Source of the DNA: Fulvivirga aurantia
GTDB lineage: Bacteria; Bacteroidota; Bacteroidia; Cytophagales; Cyclobacteriaceae
NCBI RefSeq assembly: GCF_009711475.1
Contig: NZ_SMMD01000905.1
Span: 1 to 15,423 of the forward strand
Reading direction: 5' to 3'
Length of the DNA: 15,423 nt
Shown piece after piece: positions 3,520-15,423 of this stretch. The translations under genes were made by a program, and so were the position numbers. Numbering within the stretch: the first letter of the stretch is position 1; the number at the start of each line of letters is the position of its first letter. The notes under the pieces were generated by a model. The model saw only the letters and a list, made by a program, of their open reading frames with translations, ran no database searches and was not told the origin of the DNA.

Positions 3520-5511
3520 GTGAATTCAGAATTAATAGCTTCTACAAAGAAATACTGCAACAGTCTTACCCAATATTCCAGAAGAAAAACCAGAGAAGTC
3601 TACATTGGCGATGTGCCTCTAGGTGGCGATAACCCCATCAGAGTACAATCAATGACTACCGTAGACACGATGGATACGATGGGCTCCGTTGAGCAAACGA
3701 TACGTATGGTTGAGGCCGGTTGCGAATATGTGAGGATAACCGCGCCTAGCTTAAAAGAGGCTCAAAACCTTGCTGAGATAAAGAAAGAGCTCAGAAAACG
3801 AGGTTATAATGTGCCATTGGTTGCTGATATTCACTTCACACCTAATGCGGCAGAGTTAGCGGCAAAAATCGTTGAAAAAGTACGGGTAAATCCCGGCAAC
3901 TATGCCGATAAAAAGAAATTTGAGCAAATAGAGTATACTGACGATACTTATCAGGCTGAGCTTGATAGAATCAGAGAAAAATTCACACCACTGGTTGAAA
4001 TCTGTAAAGAGCATGGTACCGCTATGCGTATTGGTACCAACCACGGCTCCTTATCAGATAGAATCATGAGCCGCTATGGTGATACACCACTGGGTATGGT
4101 GGAGTCGGCTTTAGAATTTTTAAGAATCTGCGAAGATCTTGAGTACTACGATATTGTATTATCGATGAAGGCCAGTAACACACAAGTGATGGTGCAGGCA
4201 TACAGGCTACTTGTCAACAAACTGGAAGAAGAAGGTTTGCAACCCTATCCTTTGCATTTGGGAGTGACAGAAGCCGGAGAGGGTGAAGATGGCAGGATTA
4301 AGAGTGCGGTTGGTATTGGCACTTTGCTTGAAGATGGCCTTGGAGATACAGTACGCGTGTCGCTCACTGAAGAACCTGAATTCGAAGCTCCTGTAGCCCA
4401 GACCATGGTTGATCGCTATATCGACAGAGCAGATCATCAGTCAATAGCCCCAATCGAGAACAATCCGCTTGACCCGTTTAAATATGAGCGCAGAGACTCG
4501 CGTGAAGTAGCAAATATCGGTGGACAAAACGTGCCTCGTGTGATAACCGATCTAAGCGGAATTGCACTTGACAACTATAAAGACCTTAAAGCAATAGGGC
4601 ATTTCTATTTGCCAGAGCCTGATAAGTGGAGAATGAATGACCTTGGGGCTGACTATATTTATAGCGGTGGCAAACCGGTTCCTTTTATGCTACCCAATGG
4701 CCTTAAAGAAATTATTGATTATGACGTTTGGTTAAATCATGCTGATCAGGTCAACAAGATTCCATTGTTGAATGCAGATCAATATCAAGGGAAGAGCAGC
4801 AAACATGCTGCAGTCAATTTTATAGCAGTTGATGTAGCCGATCTTAATGATGCTTTTCTGGATACTTTAAAACAAGATAAGACAGCTGTTCTTTTGCTAG
4901 AGACAAATAATAAACACGGTTTAGCCGAGCAAAGGCGGGCTTTCATGAAGCTCATCAATGCAAATGTGACACAACCGGTAATCATAAAAAGAGATTACTC
5001 AGACCTCACGGAAGATCAGTTGCAGATCTATGCTGCCACAGACATCGGTGGACTTCTTATCGATGGTCTGGGTGATGGTGTATTGCTAGCCCATCATTGG
5101 GATGAAAAACTAAATAAAGAAGAACAATTAGCGTTGGTTCAAAACTTCAACAATACCAGTTTCGGCATATTGCAAGCGGCCCGTACCCGTATGACGAAGA
5201 CTGAGTATATTTCTTGTCCGTCTTGCGGTCGTACACTTTTTGATTTGCAAGAGACAACGGCAATGATCAGAAAACGTACCGATCACCTCAAGGGTGTTAA
5301 AATTGGTATCATGGGATGTATTGTAAACGGACCTGGAGAAATGGCTGATGCGGATTACGGCTATGTGGGATCTGGTAAAGGTAAAATTACGTTGTACAAA
5401 GGACAGGAAGTGATGAAAAGAGGAGTGCCGTCTGAGCATGCAGTAGATGAGCTGATCGAGATTATTAGAGAAGATGGTCAATGGGTAGAACCTGAGCTCA
5501 ATCACGACTAA
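3520..5511 (+). CDS. ispG: 4-hydroxy-3-methylbut-2-en-1-yl diphosphate synthase, long three-domain form
   Basis: A 663-residue IspG (GcpE) of the MEP isoprenoid pathway. It reductively opens the cyclic diphosphate MEcPP to HMBPP using a [4Fe-4S] cluster and reduced ferredoxin or flavodoxin. The N-terminal TIM barrel starts at YCNSLTQYSRRKTREV (12-27), with IRVQSMTTVDTMDT (40-53) and VADIHFTPNAA (101-111). The first part continues past LSMKASN (214-220) and GVTEAGEGEDGRIKSAVGIG (248-267). Residues about 310-550 are the extra middle domain found in the Bacteroidota/Chlamydia/plant type and absent from the roughly 370-residue proteobacterial type. The C-terminal reductase-like domain carries the cluster ligands C566 and C569 (CPSCGRT), C600 (GCIVNGPGE) and E607. 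The start is GTG at 3520; it gives the usual N-terminal length, and no ATG lies before the conserved core. No recognisable ribosome binding site. Identity is secure. Confidence 0.97.
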   Translation: MNSELIASTKKYCNSLTQYSRRKTREVYIGDVPLGGDNPIRVQSMTTVDTMDTMGSVEQTIRMVEAGCEYVRITAPSLKEAQNLAEIKKELRKRGYNVPLVADIHFTPNAAELAAKIVEKVRVNPGNYADKKKFEQIEYTDDTYQAELDRIREKFTPLVEICKEHGTAMRIGTNHGSLSDRIMSRYGDTPLGMVESALEFLRICEDLEYYDIVLSMKASNTQVMVQAYRLLVNKLEEEGLQPYPLHLGVTEAGEGEDGRIKSAVGIGTLLEDGLGDTVRVSLTEEPEFEAPVAQTMVDRYIDRADHQSIAPIENNPLDPFKYERRDSREVANIGGQNVPRVITDLSGIALDNYKDLKAIGHFYLPEPDKWRMNDLGADYIYSGGKPVPFMLPNGLKEIIDYDVWLNHADQVNKIPLLNADQYQGKSSKHAAVNFIAVDVADLNDAFLDTLKQDKTAVLLLETNNKHGLAEQRRAFMKLINANVTQPVIIKRDYSDLTEDQLQIYAATDIGGLLIDGLGDGVLLAHHWDEKLNKEEQLALVQNFNNTSFGILQAARTRMTKTEYISCPSCGRTLFDLQETTAMIRKRTDHLKGVKIGIMGCIVNGPGEMADADYGYVGSGKGKITLYKGQEVMKRGVPSEHAVDELIEIIREDGQWVEPELNHD

Positions 5512-5527
5512 GTGAGGAATAATAACC

Positions 5528-5544
5528 AGTCATTTAAAATGACT
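5528..5544 (+). other. Perfect 8-bp inverted repeat between ispG and the DUF6728-type gene
   Basis: AGTCATTT (5528-5535) and AAATGACT (5537-5544) are exact reverse complements around a single A, 17 nt after the ispG stop. As RNA it would form about 7 bp with a 3-nt loop (TAA). It lacks a following T-run, so it could be an operator-like palindrome or a weak RNA hairpin rather than an intrinsic terminator. The symmetry is seen; the function is unknown. Confidence 0.35.
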
Positions 5545-5558
5545 AATTTGAATAACAT

Positions 5559-5762
5559 ATGGCAAATCGAGAAAAGAATGAGGACAGAAATTCGCTGAAA
5601 GATTATTTTCAGTTAGGAGAAGTGTGGGGTTATTTTTTCAGAAAGAAAGACCCAAATAGGCCATCTAATTTTAGCATTAGATCAATGCACTTTGTCAACA
5701 AATTGTCTATTACGATCTTCTTGTTGGGCATGATCTACTTCATAGGCAAGCACTTATTTTAA
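5559..5762 (+). CDS. Small DUF6728-type membrane protein
   Basis: A 67-residue protein. The N-terminus is charged and hydrophilic (1-14), followed by DYFQLGEVWGYFFRKKDPNRP (15-35), then SNFSIRSMHFVNKLS, and a single membrane segment at about 49-64 (LSITIFLLGMIYFIGK). The pattern GEV-x-x-YFFRKKDPNRPSNF...MH-x-x-NKLSI followed by one helix matches, from memory, the small DUF6728 family typical of Cytophagales, whose function is not known. It lies 47 nt after ispG on the same strand, separated by a perfect inverted repeat. The ATG at 5559 gives a full family-like N-terminus. A cytoplasmic N-terminus with the C-terminus outside is predicted from the positive residues before the helix. Confidence 0.75.
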   Translation: MANREKNEDRNSLKDYFQLGEVWGYFFRKKDPNRPSNFSIRSMHFVNKLSITIFLLGMIYFIGKHLF

Positions 5763-7890: not shown

Positions 7891-10800
7891 ATGTCAAGCC
7901 GTTTTTTACACAGAATTTTATTATCCTCTCTTTCTATACTACTACTTGCTTGTGGTGGTGATAAACCTTCTCAAGAGCCAATTGAGGTCGATCCGGCCTT
8001 TACGGGTTATGTTTCAGCATTCACTTCGGGAGTTATTTCTGTTGAGAGCACCATTCAGGTAAGGCTTCGAGAAGCTATTCCGGGCACAACGGCTGGTGAG
8101 AAAGCGGCTGATGACTTGTTTGATTTTAAACCAAGTATCGAAGGTGAAGCTCAATGGATATCCGACCGTATTGTAGAGTTTACGCCTGCTGAGACCTTAC
8201 CCTCAGGCAAATTATTCGAAGTAGATTTTGCGCTGGGAGATATAATGGAAGTGCCTGATAAACTGGAAGTGCTCACTTTTCAGTTTCAAACCATGGAGCA
8301 GCATATTTCTGTAAATTTCGGTGGTCTCGAGGCCTATGACAAAAAGAACCTTGACTGGCAAAAACTCAAAGGCGAGTTAGTGACCTCAGATTTTGCCTTT
8401 GATGAAAAAGTGGAGGGCTCACTTAAGGCCACTCAAGGTGGTAAAAAGGTTTCTCTTAAATGGGAGCACTCTGCCAATGGCAGAAATCACAATTTTGTAA
8501 TAGATAGTATTCAAAGGGGTAAAAGTGCCAGCCAGGTTGTGCTGCAATGGGATGGCGAGCCTATGGAGTCACCTTCAAAAGGTGAGGAAGTGATAGAAAT
8601 ACCCCCGCTAGGTGATTTTACCGTTATGAATATGCGCCTGACCCAGCAGCCTGAGCAATATATTACCTTGTATTTTTCAGACCCACTGGCAGAGCAACAG
8701 GAATTAAAAGGTCTGATATATCTGAAATCGGGCACTAATCTTAGGTTCGTAATTGATGACAACACGGTAACAGCCTACCCGGCCGAACGCATGACCGAGC
8801 AGACTGAGTTGCTCGTAACAAAAGGTGTGAGAAATACCATGGGTTATCAAATGAAGACAGCTTTCTCACAAACCGTGAAGTTTAGCAACATCAAACCAAA
8901 TGTAGAATTGATCGGTGATGGTGTGATCTTACCTAGTACTGATGGCCTTATTTTTCCTTTTAAAGCAGTAAACCTCAATGGTGTAAATGTAAGAGTGCTT
9001 AAAATCTTTGAAGACAACATAGGCCAGTTCTTACAAGTCAACCACCTTGACGGGCGAAGAGAGCTGAAAAGAGTCGGTCGACTCATTTATAAAGAAGATG
9101 TCGCACTCAAATCACTGGGAGCAGTAGATTTCGGAGTCTGGAATTCCTTTGCATTAGACTTATCGAAAATTATACAAGTCGAGCCCGGTGCAATCTATCG
9201 TGTAACGCTAGATTTTGATAAGAAACATTCACTATTCCCTTGTAGCGATACTGAGGAGGAGGAAGATGGAGAAGTAGATTTCTTACTTGATGATCCTGAA
9301 ATGTTAAGCTATGATGATACCGATGACTATTATTATGACGACTACTACTACAATTATAATGATGGCTATCGTTGGGACGAGCGTGACAACCCATGTCGAC
9401 CATCATACTACATGCGAAACAGGCATGTAAAATCGAGAAATGTGCTTGCTTCTGACCTTGGTATAATCGTGAAAGGAGGTGATAGTAAAGAGTTATTAGT
9501 AGCTGTTACCGACCTCACAACAACTGCATCAAAACAGGGGGTAAATGTTGAGGTCCTCAACCTTCAAAACCAGGTGATTGCTTCTGGTGTGACAGAAAGC
9601 AATGGCATGGTAAGAATTCCTATTGACTCAAAGCCTTATTTATTAACAGCCAAAGATGGCAACCAGCGTGGTTATTTACGTCTAGATGATGGTTCAGCCT
9701 TGTCGCTAAGTATGTTTGATATCGGTGGTAGTGAAGTGAAAAAAGGCCTCAAAGGCTTTATCTATGGAGAAAGAGGCGTTTGGCGTCCGGGTGACTCATT
9801 ATATGTTTCCTTTATGATGGAAGACAAGCTCAACCTCATTCCCGATGACCACCCAATTGTTTTTGAGCTATTTACGCCTGAAAATCAGCTGTTTTCTCGC
9901 AATGTGAAAACCAAATCAGTGAAAGGATTATATGACTTCAGAACAGCCACAAAGCCGGAGTCACCAACAGGCAACTGGTTAGCCAAAGTTAAAGTCGGAG
10001 GAGTATCATTTACCAAAACCCTTAAAATTGAAACGGTGAAGCCTAATAGGCTTAAAATCAATATAGATTTTGAAGAGGAAGTCTTGAAATCTGGTCAGGC
10101 CACACCAGGAGAGATTGAGGTAAAATGGCTTCATGGCGCTATCGCTAAAAGTCTAAAAACGGATATTGAAGTTACACTCACCGAGGGTAATGCCCCTTTT
10201 GATAAGTACAAAGACTATCATTTTAACGACCCAATCAAAAGTTTTGAGTCAGAATCAAAGTTCATTTTCGATGGTAAATTAGACGAACAGGGCAAAGCGC
10301 AAATAAAGGCCTCTTTCAATGTTTCTGACAATGCTCCGGGAGTCCTTGATGCTAATTTTAAAGTACGTGCTTTCGAGCAGGGTGGTGATTTTAGCGTAGA
10401 TCGTTTTAGCATGCCATACTCACCTTATACCTCTTATGTCGGGGTGAAAATTCCAAAAGGTAAAGGGTGGCGAGATGCGTTATATAGCAATGAGTCTAAT
10501 TTAATCCCTATTGTCACAGTCGATGAAGAAGGTAAGCCTGTAAGTAGAGACAAACTAAAAATTGAGATTTTTAATGTCGGCTGGCGCTGGTGGTGGGAGA
10601 GAAGCGAGCAGGAAGACCTGGCCCAGTATATAAGAAGCCGATCTACCAATTTGCTCAAGACTGACTACGTAAGCACAGGTGCCGATGGCAAAGTCATGTA
10701 TGACTTTAATTTGGACAAAAGGTCTTGGGGTAGAAAGCTTATAAGAATAACAGACCCTGTTTCCGGTCACAGCACTGGTAAATTATTCTATACTTCTTAT

Positions 10801-13476
10801 AGAGGCTGGTGGCGATCAGGCCAGGAAGGACCCGGTGGTGCAGAAATGTTGACTTTTAAAACCAACAAAGAAAAATACAGCATTCGAGAACAGGTAGAAG
10901 TCACATTGCCAGCCAATGAAACAGGTCGTACTTTGGTGAGTATCGAGTCAGGATCGGAAGTTGTAGACGCCTTCTGGGTAGAGTCACAAGCTGAGCAGTC
11001 AACGTTTACTTTTGAGACCACTGAGGCTATGGCACCTAATGTGTTTGTACACATCAGCTATATTCAGCCACATAATGTTACAGCCAATGATTTGCCTATT
11101 CGTATGTATGGTGTGCAGTCGATCGCTGTCGAAAATCCAAAGACACACCTCAATCCACAAATCAATATGCCCGATGTATTAGCCCCTGAGGAGCGCTTTA
11201 CAATAGAAGTAAGTGAAAAAGATGGCAAAGGGATGGCCTACACTGTAGCCGTGGTTGATGAAGGTTTACTGGATCTAACCCGTTTCAAAACTCCTGACCC
11301 GTGGAATTATTTCTTTTCGCGTGAAGCACTTGGCGTGAAAACCTGGGACATGTATCAATATGTAGTTGGTGCCATGGCAGGAGAGATGTCTGGTCTACTG
11401 GCTTTGGGTGGTGATGAAGAATTATTGGGCAAAGACGGTGGCAAGAAAGCTAATCGCTTTAAACCAGTGGTTAAATATGCGGGGCCATTCTACCTTAAAC
11501 CTGGAGAAAAGGCTAAACATACTTTTCGCATGCCTAATTATGTAGGCTCTGTGCGCACAATGGTCGTTGCTGGTGGAGGTGAAGCCTACGGCAAGTCAGA
11601 AAAAGCCACACCGGTAAAGAAACCGTTGATGGTGCTTACCACTTTACCACGTGTGATCGGACCTGGTGAAACTGTAAAAGTGCCTGTTACTGTTTTTGCT
11701 ATGGATAAGAAAATCAAGACCGTAAGAGCTGAGATTCAGTCAAACGATCTCTTTCACTGTAAAGGCAGCGATAGACAAACCCTGAGATTTACCGAAGAAG
11801 GTGACCAGGTGGTCTATTTTGAGTTGGAAGCGAAAGAATCTATTGGGATTGGCAAGGTCGAAGTAGTGGTTTCAGGCCATGGAGAGCGTGCAAGCCATGA
11901 AGTGGAAATGGATGTGAGGTTGGCAAACCCTCCGGTTAAGAGATATGTAGATGCAGTGATCGAGCCGGGTCAAAGCTGGTCAACTGATTATAGCCCAATC
12001 GGAGTAGAAGGCACTAACAGCGCCATTATGGAAGTGTCAAGCTTTCCACAACTCAATTTAGAAAGTCGTCTAGATTATCTTATCAGGTATCCACATGGTT
12101 GTGTTGAGCAGGTCACATCATCGGTATTTCCTCAACTGCATTTGGATAAGGTGCTAGATCTTTCTGATGAGAGAAAAAAAGAGATAGAGAATAACATCAG
12201 AGCTGCTATAGAAAGACTAAGAAACTTCCAGAATTCAGATGGTGGTCTTTCTTACTGGCCGGGACAGTACAGCAATTATAGCGGCTGGGGAACTAACTAT
12301 GCAGGACACTTTATGATAGAAGCTGAGGCCTCTGGGTACTCTCTTCCGACTGGTTTTAAGAAAAGCTGGGTGCGATTCCAAACTACCAGGGCCAACGAAT
12401 GGGACGATACACGTAATTCAGATTATCGCTATTGGCGCAGAAGCAGTCAGAATACCCAGGCTTATAGATTATATACGCTCGCGCTTGCCGGAAGTCCTGC
12501 TTTAGGTGCAATGAACAGAATGCGAGAAACACCAAATCTTACTTCTGCTGCACGATGGAGATTAGCAGCGGCTTATCAATTGGCCGGTCGTAGACAGGTA
12601 GCCAGTCAAATTATTTCAGGAGCTTCCATAGATGTTGATGAATATCGGGAACTGGGTTATTCTTATGGAAGCTCAATGCGAGACCGTGCTATGATTTTAG
12701 AGGCCTTGGTACTTTTGGATGATAAAATAACTGCTAAGAAAGTATTAGACGAACTCGTAGATCAAATAGGCTCTCGCAGGTGGTTTAGCACCCAGACGGT
12801 AGCTTATACACTATTGGGCGTAGCCAAATTTGTTGGCAGTCGTGATGACGCTTCACCTTTTGGTTATGAGTTTACGATCAATGGTAAAAAATCTCAAAAA
12901 GCTGATCCTGAGAAGCCTGTCATGCAACATAAACTCAACTTTAGTGCAGAAAAGGTCACACTGAAAAATACCAGCGGTCAGTCGATTTTTGTGAGATTGA
13001 TCAACGAAGGTACACCAATGACCAGCGATCAGCTTGATGAGTCAAATGGTCTGGAGATGACTGTGAGGTATGAAGACATGTCTGGTAAAACAATTGATGT
13101 TTCCAGGCTCGAACAAGGCTCCGATTTTATCGCTGAGGTAACGGTGAAGCATCCGGGTGGGGTAAGATTTCACTATGAAGAGATGGCGTTGACGCAGATA
13201 TTCCCTTCAGGTTGGGAAATTAGAAACCTAAGAATGGATTTGACTACGAGCATCAATGTTGGTGATACTCCTGAGTATCAGGATATCCGCGATGATCGCG
13301 TGTACACTTATTTTGATTTGTATGCTTCTAAGAGTAAAACATTTAGAGTGGTGTTAAATGCGGCCTACCTCGGTAGATTTTACCAGCCGGCAGTACATGC
13401 AGGAGCAATGTATGATGATGAAATCAGTGCCTACAAATCCGGCCAATGGGTTGAAGTGGTGCCGAGTGGATTTTAA
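7891..13476 (+). CDS. Bacterial alpha-2-macroglobulin family lipoprotein with intact thioester
   Basis: An 1861-residue envelope protein. The signal peptide ends in a lipobox L18-L-A-C21, predicting a lipid-anchored Cys21. N-terminal macroglobulin (MG) domains run to about residue 1000; GERGVWRPGD (626-635) is the conserved MG-domain signature. A patch GWRWWWERS begins at 897. The bait region is expected before GPFYLKPGEKAKHTFRMPNYVGSVRTMVVAGGGEAYG (from about 1197). The thioester motif PHGCVEQ has C1404 and Q1407, the pair that forms the internal thioester. The following alpha-helical thioester domain (about 1390-1650) includes NSDGGLSYWPGQYSNYSGWG. The C-terminal MG domain occupies about 1690-1861. 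In the family, proteases that cut the bait trigger a conformational change and covalent trapping. Odd feature: an Asp/Glu/Tyr-rich insert between C451 and C502. The frequent partner PbpC is not within this window; repetitive DNA follows instead. Confidence 0.95.
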   Translation: MSSRFLHRILLSSLSILLLACGGDKPSQEPIEVDPAFTGYVSAFTSGVISVESTIQVRLREAIPGTTAGEKAADDLFDFKPSIEGEAQWISDRIVEFTPAETLPSGKLFEVDFALGDIMEVPDKLEVLTFQFQTMEQHISVNFGGLEAYDKKNLDWQKLKGELVTSDFAFDEKVEGSLKATQGGKKVSLKWEHSANGRNHNFVIDSIQRGKSASQVVLQWDGEPMESPSKGEEVIEIPPLGDFTVMNMRLTQQPEQYITLYFSDPLAEQQELKGLIYLKSGTNLRFVIDDNTVTAYPAERMTEQTELLVTKGVRNTMGYQMKTAFSQTVKFSNIKPNVELIGDGVILPSTDGLIFPFKAVNLNGVNVRVLKIFEDNIGQFLQVNHLDGRRELKRVGRLIYKEDVALKSLGAVDFGVWNSFALDLSKIIQVEPGAIYRVTLDFDKKHSLFPCSDTEEEEDGEVDFLLDDPEMLSYDDTDDYYYDDYYYNYNDGYRWDERDNPCRPSYYMRNRHVKSRNVLASDLGIIVKGGDSKELLVAVTDLTTTASKQGVNVEVLNLQNQVIASGVTESNGMVRIPIDSKPYLLTAKDGNQRGYLRLDDGSALSLSMFDIGGSEVKKGLKGFIYGERGVWRPGDSLYVSFMMEDKLNLIPDDHPIVFELFTPENQLFSRNVKTKSVKGLYDFRTATKPESPTGNWLAKVKVGGVSFTKTLKIETVKPNRLKINIDFEEEVLKSGQATPGEIEVKWLHGAIAKSLKTDIEVTLTEGNAPFDKYKDYHFNDPIKSFESESKFIFDGKLDEQGKAQIKASFNVSDNAPGVLDANFKVRAFEQGGDFSVDRFSMPYSPYTSYVGVKIPKGKGWRDALYSNESNLIPIVTVDEEGKPVSRDKLKIEIFNVGWRWWWERSEQEDLAQYIRSRSTNLLKTDYVSTGADGKVMYDFNLDKRSWGRKLIRITDPVSGHSTGKLFYTSYRGWWRSGQEGPGGAEMLTFKTNKEKYSIREQVEVTLPANETGRTLVSIESGSEVVDAFWVESQAEQSTFTFETTEAMAPNVFVHISYIQPHNVTANDLPIRMYGVQSIAVENPKTHLNPQINMPDVLAPEERFTIEVSEKDGKGMAYTVAVVDEGLLDLTRFKTPDPWNYFFSREALGVKTWDMYQYVVGAMAGEMSGLLALGGDEELLGKDGGKKANRFKPVVKYAGPFYLKPGEKAKHTFRMPNYVGSVRTMVVAGGGEAYGKSEKATPVKKPLMVLTTLPRVIGPGETVKVPVTVFAMDKKIKTVRAEIQSNDLFHCKGSDRQTLRFTEEGDQVVYFELEAKESIGIGKVEVVVSGHGERASHEVEMDVRLANPPVKRYVDAVIEPGQSWSTDYSPIGVEGTNSAIMEVSSFPQLNLESRLDYLIRYPHGCVEQVTSSVFPQLHLDKVLDLSDERKKEIENNIRAAIERLRNFQNSDGGLSYWPGQYSNYSGWGTNYAGHFMIEAEASGYSLPTGFKKSWVRFQTTRANEWDDTRNSDYRYWRRSSQNTQAYRLYTLALAGSPALGAMNRMRETPNLTSAARWRLAAAYQLAGRRQVASQIISGASIDVDEYRELGYSYGSSMRDRAMILEALVLLDDKITAKKVLDELVDQIGSRRWFSTQTVAYTLLGVAKFVGSRDDASPFGYEFTINGKKSQKADPEKPVMQHKLNFSAEKVTLKNTSGQSIFVRLINEGTPMTSDQLDESNGLEMTVRYEDMSGKTIDVSRLEQGSDFIAEVTVKHPGGVRFHYEEMALTQIFPSGWEIRNLRMDLTTSINVGDTPEYQDIRDDRVYTYFDLYASKSKTFRVVLNAAYLGRFYQPAVHAGAMYDDEISAYKSGQWVEVVPSGF

Positions 13477-13480
13477 ATGT

Positions 13481-13522
13481 GAGATGTTAGATGTTAGAAA
13501 CTAGAATTTAGACATTAGAGAC
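13481..13522 (+). repeat. Degenerate TTAGA-type short tandem repeat, copy 1
   Basis: Starting 5 nt after the macroglobulin stop, TTAGA-like words recur about every 7-10 nt (GTTAGA, GTTAGA, CTAGAA, TTTAGA, ATTAGA). A second such segment precedes the next composite repeat, so it appears to be part of the repeat organisation. Confidence 0.5.
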
Positions 13523-13526
13523 AGCA

Positions 13527-13665
13527 TAGCGCAAAGGGTGAAGAGTATGATGCTTAGAGCGGGGTGTAGAGGGGGAAAATTAACCATTTACCGTTGTTTA
13601 CTTGGCCTTCAAGGATTAGTAAGTATTATGCCAATGAATTTGGACTATTGATGCCATGCCTTTGA
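13527..13665 (+). repeat. Composite repeat copy A (contains hairpin A)
   Basis: Aligns directly with copy B about 202-206 nt downstream. Shared blocks are GCTTAGAGC-r-GGGTGTAGA (13552 versus 13754), the hairpin with CCTTCAAGGATTAGTAAG, and the tail words CAATGAA, CTATTGATGC and CCTTTGA. Copy A lacks the GGTATCAATTAA tail of copy B, so it is shorter at the 3' side, where the second TTAGA-rich segment takes over. Confidence 0.65.
13596..13624 (+). repeat. 29-nt hairpin repeat, copy A
   Basis: Left arm GTTTACTTG, core beginning GCCTTCAAGG, right arm TTAGTAAGT. It is the most degenerate copy (position 8 T opposite T22), but the outer pairs are kept as wobbles (G1-T29, T2-G28). Confidence 0.6.
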
Positions 13666-13666
13666 T

Positions 13667-13702
13667 TTTTAGAAGTTAGATTTTGGAGGTTAGAAATTAG
13701 AC
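13667..13702 (+). repeat. Degenerate TTAGA-type short tandem repeat, copy 2
   Basis: TTTAGA, GTTAGA, GTTAGA and ATTAGA recur over 36 nt immediately before composite repeat copy B, mirroring the segment that precedes copy A. Confidence 0.5.
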
Positions 13703-13720
13703 TTATGAGTGAAGTAGGGC

Positions 13721-13915
13721 ACGGAGCAAAGGGCAAAGTGCGTAGAGCAAAGAGCTTAGAGCAGGGTGTAGAATTAGTTTGTAAGATTAATCATTACTGT
13801 GGCTTACTAAACCTTCAAGGATTAGTAAGCATGATAGACAATGAAATCAGATCTATTGATGCGTTACCTTTGAGGGATGGTATCAATTAATAGTTTCTTC
13901 TGACTGTTCCGGATA
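13721..13915 (+). repeat. Composite repeat copy B (contains hairpin B)
   Basis: The most complete copy. The 5' part is built of GAGCAAAG-like words (13723 onward), followed by GCTTAGAGCAGGGTGTAGA, hairpin B and a tail with TTGATGCG, GGTATCAATTAATAGTT and TTCTGACTG. Copy F has the same tail order (GATGCG, GGCATCAATTAACAGTT, TTCTGGCC). No target-site duplications or transposase gene were recognised. Confidence 0.65.
13802..13830 (+). repeat. 29-nt hairpin repeat, copy B
   Basis: GCTTACTAA (13802-13810) pairs perfectly with TTAGTAAGC (13822-13830). Inner CCTT/AAGG (13812-13815 with 13817-13820) extends the stem across one A-A mismatch. No T-run follows. Confidence 0.85.
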
Positions 13916-14027
13916 GGGGCTGACAATACACTATACTTACTATTCACATACACTCACAAATACAATTAATAACCATGTGATATTGAGCTGTTAGATCAAA
14001 AGGGTGAGTCTCTGGGGAAAAGCTCAG

Positions 14028-14056
14028 GTTTACTAAGCCTCCAGGGATTAGTAAAT
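14028..14056 (+). repeat. 29-nt hairpin repeat, copy C
   Basis: Left arm GTTTACTAA, core GCCTCCAGGGA, right arm TTAGTAAAT. The second pair is T-A rather than C-G, a compensated change relative to other copies. Confidence 0.75.
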
Positions 14057-14079
14057 CTTCATTCATTAAGACTAAATAA

Positions 14080-14108
14080 TCTTACCAAGCTTTTAAAGTT
14101 TAGTAAGA
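14080..14108 (+). repeat. 29-nt hairpin repeat, copy D
   Basis: Left arm TCTTACCAA, core GCTTTTAAAGT, right arm TTAGTAAGA. The outermost pair is T-A, and inner position 12-18 is T-A instead of C-G, again compensated; one C-A mismatch (7-23). Confidence 0.7.
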
Positions 14109-14134
14109 CTGTTTCAAATGCTATGCGATATAAA

Positions 14135-14163
14135 CCTTACTAATCCTAAGAGGCTTAGTAAGG
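14135..14163 (-). repeat. 29-nt hairpin repeat, copy E (inverted)
   Basis: Read on the minus strand: left arm CCTTACTAA, core GCCTCTTAGGA, right arm TTAGTAAGG. The orientation is opposite to the other five copies. It begins about 31 nt past the stop of the minus-strand gene at 14195, in that gene's reading direction, so it would lie in its 3' untranslated region. Confidence 0.8.
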
Positions 14164-14194
14164 TAGTGCCAATCATTTCTCAGTTTACTCTGGT

Positions 14195-14842
14195 CTACTC
14201 ACAATCCACTGACGTAAGGCGACTTTGACCGTTTTCATCTTTGATTAATTGATAGCCATTATTGAGCATGTAGTTTAGGTCATTTCTACCATTAATATGC
14301 CAGAGAAAGTGACCATACAAGCAATTTGTAATTCTATCTTCATCAAGTTCTTTCTTTAAAAGAGTATCAATTTGATGCCAATACTTTGATTGAGAGTGAG
14401 CAAATATAATGTAAGGGTTAAATTCTGAATCCAGAGGTTTTGTATAGTAACGTTTGATACGATCAGTACCAGGAAATCCGTACATCTCTGTAATCTCAAT
14501 CAATCGCTCGGTATGTTTCTTGTCAAAAGGTATAATATATTCATCCATAATCTGAGCACTTAGTGCTTCATTTTGAAAACTGTTGTTATCGATCCAAGCC
14601 GCCCGGTCCTGTGTCGACAAATTTTCAATACTATCAGTCAAAGATTTATCAAATGATCTGAAAATTAAATACTCACGCAAGCGCTGGTCGTATTCATACA
14701 TAAAGACTAATTCTTCTGTAATAGTATTGATGTCTTCCTTTAGCCTTTCGTCTTTCTCATCCTGAGCATTGACCGTGCAGGAGCAAAGTATAAAAAATGC
14801 ATTAACAACTAAGAAACTTGATAGAGAATTGTATTTGAACAT
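14195..14842 (-). CDS. Exported DUF6624-like protein of unknown function
   Basis: A 215-residue protein with a signal peptide (hydrophobic 10-22, likely cleavage after Ala26 in VNAQD). C20 and C22 do not sit in a good lipobox, though lipidation at C22 cannot be excluded. The mature part has EELVFMYEYDQRLREYL (44-60), then DKKHTERLIEITEMYGFPGTDRI (107-129), a His in IIFAHSQSKYWHQIDTLLKKEL (144-165), and YGHFLWHINGRNDLNYMLNNGYQL (about 175-198). The order D-Q-x-x-R, a long helix, YG-[FW]-P-G, a conserved His, then a GQ/YG-like tail resembles DUF6624, a Bacteroidota family without known function. The match is from memory and moderate. The gene is isolated, AT-rich, and flanked on both sides by hairpin repeats. 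Confidence 0.72.
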   Translation of the reverse strand: MFKYNSLSSFLVVNAFFILCSCTVNAQDEKDERLKEDINTITEELVFMYEYDQRLREYLIFRSFDKSLTDSIENLSTQDRAAWIDNNSFQNEALSAQIMDEYIIPFDKKHTERLIEITEMYGFPGTDRIKRYYTKPLDSEFNPYIIFAHSQSKYWHQIDTLLKKELDEDRITNCLYGHFLWHINGRNDLNYMLNNGYQLIKDENGQSRLTSVDCE

Positions 14843-14908
14843 GATAATGGAGGGTCACGATTAATTTCAATCTAAGATAAATAAAAGTGATTTAATTGGG
14901 TCTCTTTA

Positions 14909-15055
14909 GCGCACAGAGCAAAGCGACCTCTGACTTACTAAGCCTTTAGGGATTAGTAAGTCTGAAAGCTAATTGAAACCAGACGAATCGATGCGATCCC
15001 TGGTATGGAGGTGGCATCAATTAACAGTTATTCTGGCCACTGAATGGTCTGATGA
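14909..15055 (+). repeat. Composite repeat copy F (contains hairpin F)
   Basis: Begins with GCACAGAGCAAAGCG, compares with the GAGCAAAG block of copy B, then hairpin F, then a tail matching copy B (GATGCGAT, GGCATCAATTAACAGTT, TTCTGGCCACTGAATGG). The section between GAGCAAAG and the hairpin is shorter than in A and B. It lies between the two minus-strand genes. Confidence 0.6.
14933..14961 (+). repeat. 29-nt hairpin repeat, copy F
   Basis: ACTTACTAA pairs perfectly with TTAGTAAGT around core GCCTTTAGGGA; the stem extends one more pair outward (G14932 with C14962). The outermost repeat pair is A-T here. Confidence 0.85.
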
Positions 15056-15077
15056 ATCAAATTAAGACCTACTTAGA

Positions 15078-15116
15078 GTCCCTTGCTGGTGATTCTGCGG
15101 GACGGAAAACTCACCA
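15078..15116. other. Interleaved inverted repeats (pseudoknot-like) downstream of the thioredoxin-fold gene
   Basis: GTCCC (15078-15082) pairs with GGGAC (15099-15103), while TGGTGA (15087-15092), inside that loop, pairs with TCACCA (15111-15116). The order is that of an H-type pseudoknot, with connecting loops of 4, 6 and 7 nt. It begins about 10 nt past the stop of the minus-strand gene. It may be a 3' RNA structure or chance. Confidence 0.25.
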
Positions 15117-15125
15117 AGAACCTAT

Positions 15126-15423
15126 TTATTTGATAGTACAGTTGATGTGATCTTCAATTTTCATAAACATTTTCTTTTTTACACCTTTAAAATGAAGCAG
15201 TTGCTGATCATTTTTATATAAAAAAGTTTGTGGTGTTATATCATTGTTTTTAGTCAATTGGTGTTTTAGAATTTCATTGGAATACACCCTATAAGTCTTA
15301 ATCAAATCAGGATACTCTTTTTGTATGGCGTCTTTTTTGTCGTTTAATAAGACAATGATTTCTAATTGTTCACAGTTATCAAAAGCATGAAGATTTTCAA
15401 TCAAATACGTACTATAAGAACAG
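15126..15423 (-). CDS. Thioredoxin-fold (TlpA-like) protein, C-terminal part; start beyond window
   Basis: The minus-strand frame is open to the window edge, so only about the last 98 residues are seen. The first visible residues are C-S-Y-S-T-Y-L-I-E-N-L. A Cys followed six residues later by Leu and then x-x-x-L matches what follows the second Cys of the CxxC in TlpA/ResA-like proteins (C-x5-L-x3-L). Further on, LEIIVLLNDKKDAIQKEY resembles the second beta strand and helix, and ITPQTFLYKNDQQLLHFKGV contains the cis-Pro loop and the final beta hairpin of a thioredoxin fold. The TTG at 15404 is unlikely to be the start, as the fold would lack its first half. The role, probably thiol-disulfide exchange in the envelope, is inferred because CxxC and any signal peptide lie outside the window. 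Confidence 0.6.
   Translation of the reverse strand, partial: CSYSTYLIENLHAFDNCEQLEIIVLLNDKKDAIQKEYPDLIKTYRVYSNEILKHQLTKNNDITPQTFLYKNDQQLLHFKGVKKKMFMKIEDHINCTIK

What the first reader, a model, noticed from the sequence alone, without database searches (positions are those of the whole stretch)
13596..14961. Family of six 29-nt hairpin repeats with compensatory base changes
Six elements of exactly 29 nt occur at 13596, 13802, 14028, 14080, 14135 (inverted) and 14933. The consensus is left arm N-Y-TTACTAA, core GCCTYYAGGGA, right arm TTAGTAA-R-N. The outermost pair is G-T, G-C, G-T, T-A, C-G and A-T in copies A to F. The second pair is T-G, C-G, T-A, C-G, C-G and C-G. An inner pair (12-18) is T-A in copy D and C-G elsewhere. 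Pairing is thus kept while the bases change, which points to selection on a folded RNA or single-stranded DNA rather than recent copying alone. All copies lie outside genes and none has the T-run of an intrinsic terminator. The closest known concept is the REP/BIME class mobilised by RAYT (Y1) transposases; I know of no named family with this sequence.
Basis: partly seen in the sequence, partly recalled or inferred. Interest (0 to 1): 0.7.

Follow-up and report, generated by a model that had tools for sequence, protein, structure and literature searches.

The report
Hairpin repeats orphaned by their transposase
Six small DNA hairpins beside each other are copies of a repeat family that, in sister species, surrounds and sometimes sits inside the gene of a single-strand DNA transposase; this species seems to have lost that gene and kept the repeats.

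Summary
The six 29-nt hairpins are real and far above chance. They belong to a dispersed family: 20 sites on 10 contigs of this draft genome (genus inferred: Fulvivirga), 10 of 15 genomes of the genus, none found in the other five. Pairing is kept while bases change. Seven RAYTs with this hairpin, from two named families, form one clade among 98. The RAYT sits in one syntenic spot beside a response-regulator gene. In the window's genome that spot lacks the RAYT but keeps two hairpins, so these look like orphaned REPs (loss is inferred). The kind is known: Quentin et al. 2018 report REPs flanking, and inserted in frame within, such genes. What differs is the signal: the GT[AG]G foot is absent (2 of 116 feet), and RAYTs of this lineage carry Phe where E. 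coli TnpA_REP has Trp94 (74 of 77). I call it a GTRG-less variant of REP/RAYT. Mobility was not tested.

The parts
13596..13624 (+). hairpin copy A (degenerate left arm)
   Evidence: 36.6 bits; z -1.35
13802..13830 (+). hairpin copy B
   Evidence: 43.7 bits; z -5.46
14028..14056 (+). hairpin copy C
   Evidence: 40.3 bits; z -4.84
14080..14108 (+). hairpin copy D, with T-A at pair 12-18
   Evidence: 39.2 bits; z -2.64
14135..14163 (-). hairpin copy E, inverted relative to C and D
   Evidence: 45 bits; z -5.16
14933..14961 (+). hairpin copy F
   Evidence: 44.2 bits; z -4.85
13477..14194 (.). intergenic stretch between two convergent genes that holds copies A-E
   Evidence: ORF 7891-13476 on + and ORF 14195-14842 on -

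Best explanation
The hairpins are REP-like elements: non-autonomous palindromes whose folded single strand is the substrate of a cognate RAYT (Y1 transposase of the HUH class), which would nick and rejoin them and so spread them between genes. Shown: family, conserved pairing, both-sided flanking of one RAYT clade, tracking of RAYT phylogeny, a fixed RAYT locus, and RAYT absence with two hairpins left at that locus in the window's genome. Inferred: that this RAYT acts on this hairpin, that the window's species once had it and lost it, and that its copies are now immobile.
For: Family: 20 sites at E<0.05 on 10 contigs of the own genome; 10 of 15 genomes of the genus. Pairing. RAYT link: 24 match rows to the G014 RAYT in the genus; the 4 of at least 52% identity (query itself included) have model hits on both sides within about 165 nt, the other 20 rows (some fragments) none. 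In two of the four the same hairpin is also inside the gene, clearly (L187, L188), in a third weakly (L186, E 0.17). Tree of 98 RAYTs: the 7 labelled TTACTAA form one clade, 94/62, 97 with the loop cut out. Across 42 RAYT loci upstream and downstream hairpins resemble each other, 0.886 against 0.532 permuted, 0 of 2000; in-gene against own flank, 23 loci, 0.862 against 0.596, 0 of 2000. Fold: best PDB match of the RAYT model is 4er8, the RAYT bound to a REP hairpin, E 1e-7. Locus: RAYT upstream of the same response-regulator gene in 4 genomes; G000, G001 and G008 have hairpins but no RAYT there.
Against: Copy number does not follow RAYT presence: G001 and G002 give 103 and 89 match rows (both strands counted) with no RAYT of this clade found, and G002 has no hairpin at the syntenic site. 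A truncated Y1 gene of another clade in G002 (L136) has two model hits about 260-340 nt away. Two Mucilaginibacter RAYTs far off in the tree (L258, L262) have flanking hairpins that reach E 1e-4 with the model; I did not label them, and labelling them would break the single clade. No empty and filled site pair was found. Eight of 15 genomes show neither RAYT nor hairpin at the spot, so presence there may be ancestral or not.
Confidence: 0.82

Rival explanations
1. Domesticated 3'-end RNA hairpins: the copies are kept because they stabilise mRNA ends or block readthrough, and the RAYT link is history.
For: A-E lie between convergent gene ends; of 70 sites 18 are convergent and 23 codirectional, 10 divergent, 11 at an edge, 8 inside ORFs. 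REPs are described as mostly downstream of genes (PMC3733652, abstract).
Against: No T-run, copies also between divergent genes and in genes, five sister species lack them, clusters of several in one gap. Not exclusive of REP origin.
Confidence: 0.1
2. Passive spread: the hairpins are only conspicuous parts of longer repeats (200-280 nt) multiplied by recombination or as MITEs of another transposon.
For: In G014 many hairpins sit in tandem units of 231, 249 or 273 nt and one subtype has about 225 nt of conserved context; A and B in the window share flanking blocks (D2, D4, D5).
Against: Contexts differ between genomes and between subtypes while the hairpin stays; upstream and downstream RAYT hairpins match across 42 loci. 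No DDE transposase was searched for.
Confidence: 0.12
3. The copies are mobilised in the window's species by another RAYT, for example the one at G000:C214.
For: G000 has a RAYT-like gene at C214, 37% identical.
Against: That gene carries a different in-gene hairpin (CCTTCCAGG type) and no model hit lies nearby; the other Y1 gene found, C297, lies at a contig end with no model hit in the locus held.
Confidence: 0.06
4. Integron attC-like recombination sites.
For: Folded hairpins in arrays of fairly regular spacing.
Against: No gene cassettes: the 230-280 nt spacers in the two G014 arrays have no ORF of 70 aa or more. No integrase was searched for.
Confidence: 0.01

Closest known systems
TnpA_REP subclass 2.4 (RAYT group 4) with its REPs, Quentin et al. 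2018 (PMC6006769; abstract, passages and sections 12-14 seen)
   Same: Bacteroidetes among hosts; REPs flank the gene and are inserted in frame between HuH and Y motifs; NH[IFV]H and YIxNNP motifs fit NHFH and YIHNNP here.
   Different: Their subclass 2.4 REPs have a 5' GT[AG]G foot, and W94/Q95/R104 are called well conserved; here no GTRG foot above background and Phe at the W94 position. Subclass assignment could not be tested directly.
TnpA_REP subclass 2.6 (RAYT group 5), same paper
   Same: Mostly Bacteroidetes; flanking structures without GT[AG]G; YIH[QN]NP; an SS motif after the core (YSS here).
   Different: In-gene REPs are said to be unique to 2.4, and 2.6 structures are called weak and atypical; these hairpins are strong.
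E. coli REP/BIME and TnpA_REP (4er8)
   Same: Short intergenic palindromes, a mismatch in the stem in many copies, same protein fold.
   Different: No GTAG; the mismatch here is absent in G009 and G011 copies.
CGTC-tagged REPs (PMC3733652, abstract and passages)
   Same: Reported in Bacteroidetes; a cgtcatccctgcg repeat is interspersed with these hairpins in L007.
   Different: Other sequence and tag; said to lack a dedicated transposase.

Membership tests
REP elements (sensu stricto) | short (20-40 bp) palindrome in many mostly intergenic copies | tested here: met
   29-31 nt; 20 sites in a fragmented own genome; 62 of 70 sites not inside an ORF of 120 aa or more
REP elements (sensu stricto) | 5' GT[AG]G (or CGTC) tetranucleotide at the foot | tested here: not met
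   GTRG at 2 of 116 feet of this family; 17 of 278 feet (6.1%) across 76 RAYT loci against 4.4% background. CGTC was not counted
REPtron (RAYT with cognate REPs) | RAYT gene flanked by the same repeat | tested here: met
   4 of 4 RAYTs of the clade in the genus, and 3 named loci L209, L210, L221
REPtron (RAYT with cognate REPs) | RAYT present in the window's genome | tested here: not met
   best match only 37% identical and without this hairpin; syntenic spot empty of RAYT. The assembly has 947 contigs, so a copy elsewhere is not excluded
TnpA_REP/RAYT protein | Y1/HUH fold and motifs | tested here: met
   Pfam Y1_Tnp over cut-off; NCBIfam NF047646 matched below its cut-off, 58-66 against 80 bits; Foldseek 4er8 first
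TnpA_REP/RAYT protein | ssDNA cleavage and rejoining of the REP | not testable with these tools
   needs an enzyme assay
TnpA_REP subclass 2.4 | in-frame REP between HuH and Y | tested here: met
   clear in L187 and L188, weak in L186, none in L185; 24 of 84 wider RAYTs with a strong hairpin there (L240 repeats L191), 1 of 151 windows in other ORFs
TnpA_REP subclass 2.4 | Trp at the W94 position | tested here: not met
   F in 74, L 2, I 1 of 77 proteins with the motif, 21 of 98 without a readable motif; position mapped through a weak alignment, E 0.25
Intrinsic terminator | T-run after the stem | tested here: not met
   about 5% of 116 ends
Rfam families | match at gathering score | tested here: not met
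   window 13400-15423: one hit, FourU, 20 bits against 60

The most novel reading that the evidence does not exclude
Bacteroidota hold a RAYT/REP lineage that has given up the GT[AG]G guide: the enzyme, with Phe for Trp94, would read the palindrome itself, and a copy of that palindrome is kept inside the enzyme's own reading frame, where it could serve as a regulatory or donor hairpin. Hairpin and enzyme change together, and when the enzyme is lost the repeats stay behind as orphans.
Probability: 0.35. Interest if true: 0.6.

Novelty: new variant of a known kind. Interest (0 to 1): 0.42.

Why it matters
In the RAYT enzymes studied so far cleavage depends on GTAG (PMC8266576, passages). A lineage whose repeats lack that tag, with natural hairpin variants matched to their enzymes, would let the source of specificity and cleavage-site choice be tested. 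Syntenic sites with enzyme plus repeats, repeats alone, and neither also give a ready series for asking what happens to a repeat population once its transposase is gone.

Tried and rejected
Rfam scan of the locus: nothing at gathering score. Integron attC idea: no cassette genes in the arrays. Search for a filled and an empty site: G001 L128 against G014 L122 gave an N gap, not an insertion; L039 against L069 share their hairpin; the global alignment of the G001 RAYT locus was uninformative, and the reading there rests on the local matches. A first similarity measure for in-gene against flanking hairpins (own best in 8 of 23, mean 0.67 against 0.43) penalised length; I replaced it with a centre-based one (own best in 9 of 23, permutation 0 of 2000). 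Single loci go against the rule there: L215, L242, L266. Idea that each arm is itself a dyad (TTA-C-TAA): not conserved by eye, dropped. G037 RAYTs L290, L293, L297 and L300 have no model hits nearby. Three chance pattern matches (L089, L197, L216) stayed in the counts and were dropped only. Copy counts from the genome search are lower bounds in part, since only 50-150 first-look candidates per genome were scored and both strands are counted.

Full report
OBSERVATION. The inner 25-nt pattern with up to 3 mismatches matches 10 times (5 sites, both strands) against a shuffled mean of 0.01. Folding as ssDNA gives z -5.46, -4.84, -2.64, -5.16 and -4.85 for B-F and -1.35 for A. A-E lie between convergent genes, F between codirectional ones.

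FAMILY. A covariance model from 17 own-genome copies finds 20 sites at E below 0.05 on 10 of 947 contigs. Eight of the 10 contigs have a hairpin within 250 nt of a contig end, whereas such ends make up 10.7% of the genome, so the assembly breaks at these repeats and the true number is probably higher. In the genus 10 of 15 genomes have matches at E 0.01 or better: match rows, both strands, 106 in G014, 103 in G001, 89 in G002, 66 in G009, 28 in G000, 13 in G008, 12 in G011, 11 in G010, 6 in G012, 2 in G007; none in G003-G006 and G013. In an even sample of the order 9 of 148 genomes match at E 1e-4, own included. The genus is inferred: contig G008:C37 has the length of a Fulvivirga marina contig (712,099) and the RAYTs there are identical.

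PAIRING. In the 17 own-genome copies, the two outermost pairs, which the search pattern did not contain, pair in 15 and 14 of 17 with five and three standard pair types; the structure as a whole beats all 500 shuffles on four of five measures and 497 of 500 on the fifth. Over 58 distinct hairpins from all loci the pairs outside the detection core are paired in 97, 90, 93, 98 and 83% against 87, 83, 63, 47 and 46% shuffled, and pairing falls to background one pair further out. Most of those loci had been fetched with the model, so one search is the cleaner test; relatedness inflates both. Position 10/20 is G.A in 16 of 18 G014 and 8 of 15 G000 sites, G-C in all 7 G009 and 3 G011 sites, A-T in 3 G037 sites and in the 10 sites of L209, L210 and L221.

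TRANSPOSASE. Y1_Tnp genes occur in all 15 genomes of the genus. Searching the genus with the RAYT of G014 gave 24 rows in 11 of 15 genomes. Model hits lie on both sides of the four rows with at least 52% identity (G014, G010, G011, G009), within about 165 nt, and near none of the other 20 rows in the loci held. Earlier, among 69 sources around Y1 genes, hits lay near those of G014 and G010 and near a truncated Y1 gene of another clade in G002 (L136), plus weak hits in L135 and L156. In G011 and G009 the same hairpin also lies inside the gene, between the HuH and Tyr motifs. The protein is Y1_Tnp by Pfam, REP-associated tyrosine transposase by NCBIfam but under the cut-off, and its model (pLDDT 86) matches 4er8 best; the hairpin-encoded loop has low confidence (residue blocks 71-80 and 81-90: 59 and 52).

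CO-VARIATION OF HAIRPIN AND ENZYME. A scan of named genomes kept the best 80 of 557 relatives. With 17 genus loci that makes 97; of 93 with at least 150 aa (L240, a repeat of L191, left out) 76 have a strong hairpin within 200 nt and 42 on both sides; 41 of 151 other genes in these loci do too, a control inflated by closeness to the RAYT. A strong in-gene hairpin between HuH and Y is found in 24 of 84, against 1 of 151 windows in other ORFs. Upstream and downstream hairpins match within loci, as do in-gene and flanking ones. Saprospiraceae loci L209 and L210 and Bacteroidota locus L221 carry the TTACTAA core; L209 has a long tandem array at 58-59 nt and four copies inside the RAYT frame, behind the Tyr motif. 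On a tree of 98 RAYTs the seven labelled ones form one clade, 94/62, and 97 SH-aLRT after cutting out the loop (56 rows trimmed). I labelled by the TTACTAA core; two Mucilaginibacter RAYTs with TTACGAA hairpins reach E 1e-4 with the model, were left unlabelled, and lie elsewhere in the tree.

LOCUS AND LOSS. In all four genomes the RAYT lies directly upstream of a response-regulator gene and next to a divergent permease gene (both names are my reading of the sequences, not a search). The permeases are of one family but only partly similar, so the synteny rests on the regulator. Taking the best regulator match in each of 15 genomes: RAYT with hairpins in 4; hairpins without RAYT in 3 (G000, G001, G008); neither in 8, of which G003 is near a contig end and G006 is a 54% paralogue. 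In G000 (contig C590, no N in the stretch) two hairpins remain at 5509-5537 and, degenerate, 5549-5578. In G001 the sequence matches G014 on both sides of the RAYT with an overlap inside the repeated unit, which suggests deletion by recombination between flanking repeats. That this is loss and not primary absence is inference; no species tree was made.

WHAT IS KNOWN. Quentin et al. 2018 (PMC6006769; abstract, passages, sections 12-14) describe RAYT subclass 2.4 in Cyanobacteria and Bacteroidetes with REPs flanking and inserted in frame within the gene, a 5' GT[AG]G foot, and W94, Q95 and R104 well conserved. In E. coli and two other REPtrons GTAG matters for cleavage (PMC8266576, passages). 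Here GTRG is at background in 278 feet (6.1 against 4.4%) and in 2 of 116 feet of this family; the W94 position is Phe in 74 of 77 readable proteins, mapped through a weak alignment. No paper on these repeats turned up in searches of the open library; subscription papers and preprints are not in it.

VERDICT. REP-like repeats of a RAYT lineage without the GTRG tag, apparently orphaned in the window's species. The kind is known; the tagless variant, the species-specific hairpins and the scar at the syntenic site are what is new here.

Noticed in passing
window 13853-13895 and about 15006-15029: Downstream of copies B and F a second imperfect hairpin (ATTGATGC...GTATCAAT; GATGC...GGCATC) is repeated, with related pieces after A; copies and this element may form a composite unit (D5 and D6; pairing read by eye).
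   Followed up: no
window 13521-13772 and 14908-14923: Low-complexity AGAGCAAAG-like blocks repeated upstream of A, B and F (D3 and D4).
   Followed up: no
L007 (G000:C434) 63-215, also L006 and L010: A cgtcatccctgcg-type palindromic repeat, like CGTC-tagged REPs, is interspersed with the TTACTAA hairpins.
   Followed up: no
L209 1460-2436 (Saprospiraceae MAG JALHQW010000002.1): About 17 hairpins in tandem at mostly 58-59 nt upstream of a RAYT gene, with four more inside its frame.
   Followed up: partly
L065, L074, L076, L077 (G014): A repeat of about 225 nt with several hairpins, tandem at 231 nt and dispersed, that contains one hairpin subtype.
   Followed up: partly
L200 (G002:C152) and L201: Another REP-like hairpin (CCCGTCAGACGG type) repeated every 300 nt or so around a more distant RAYT.
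   Followed up: no
L317 against L070: The RAYT seems deleted in G001 by recombination between flanking direct repeats.
   Followed up: partly
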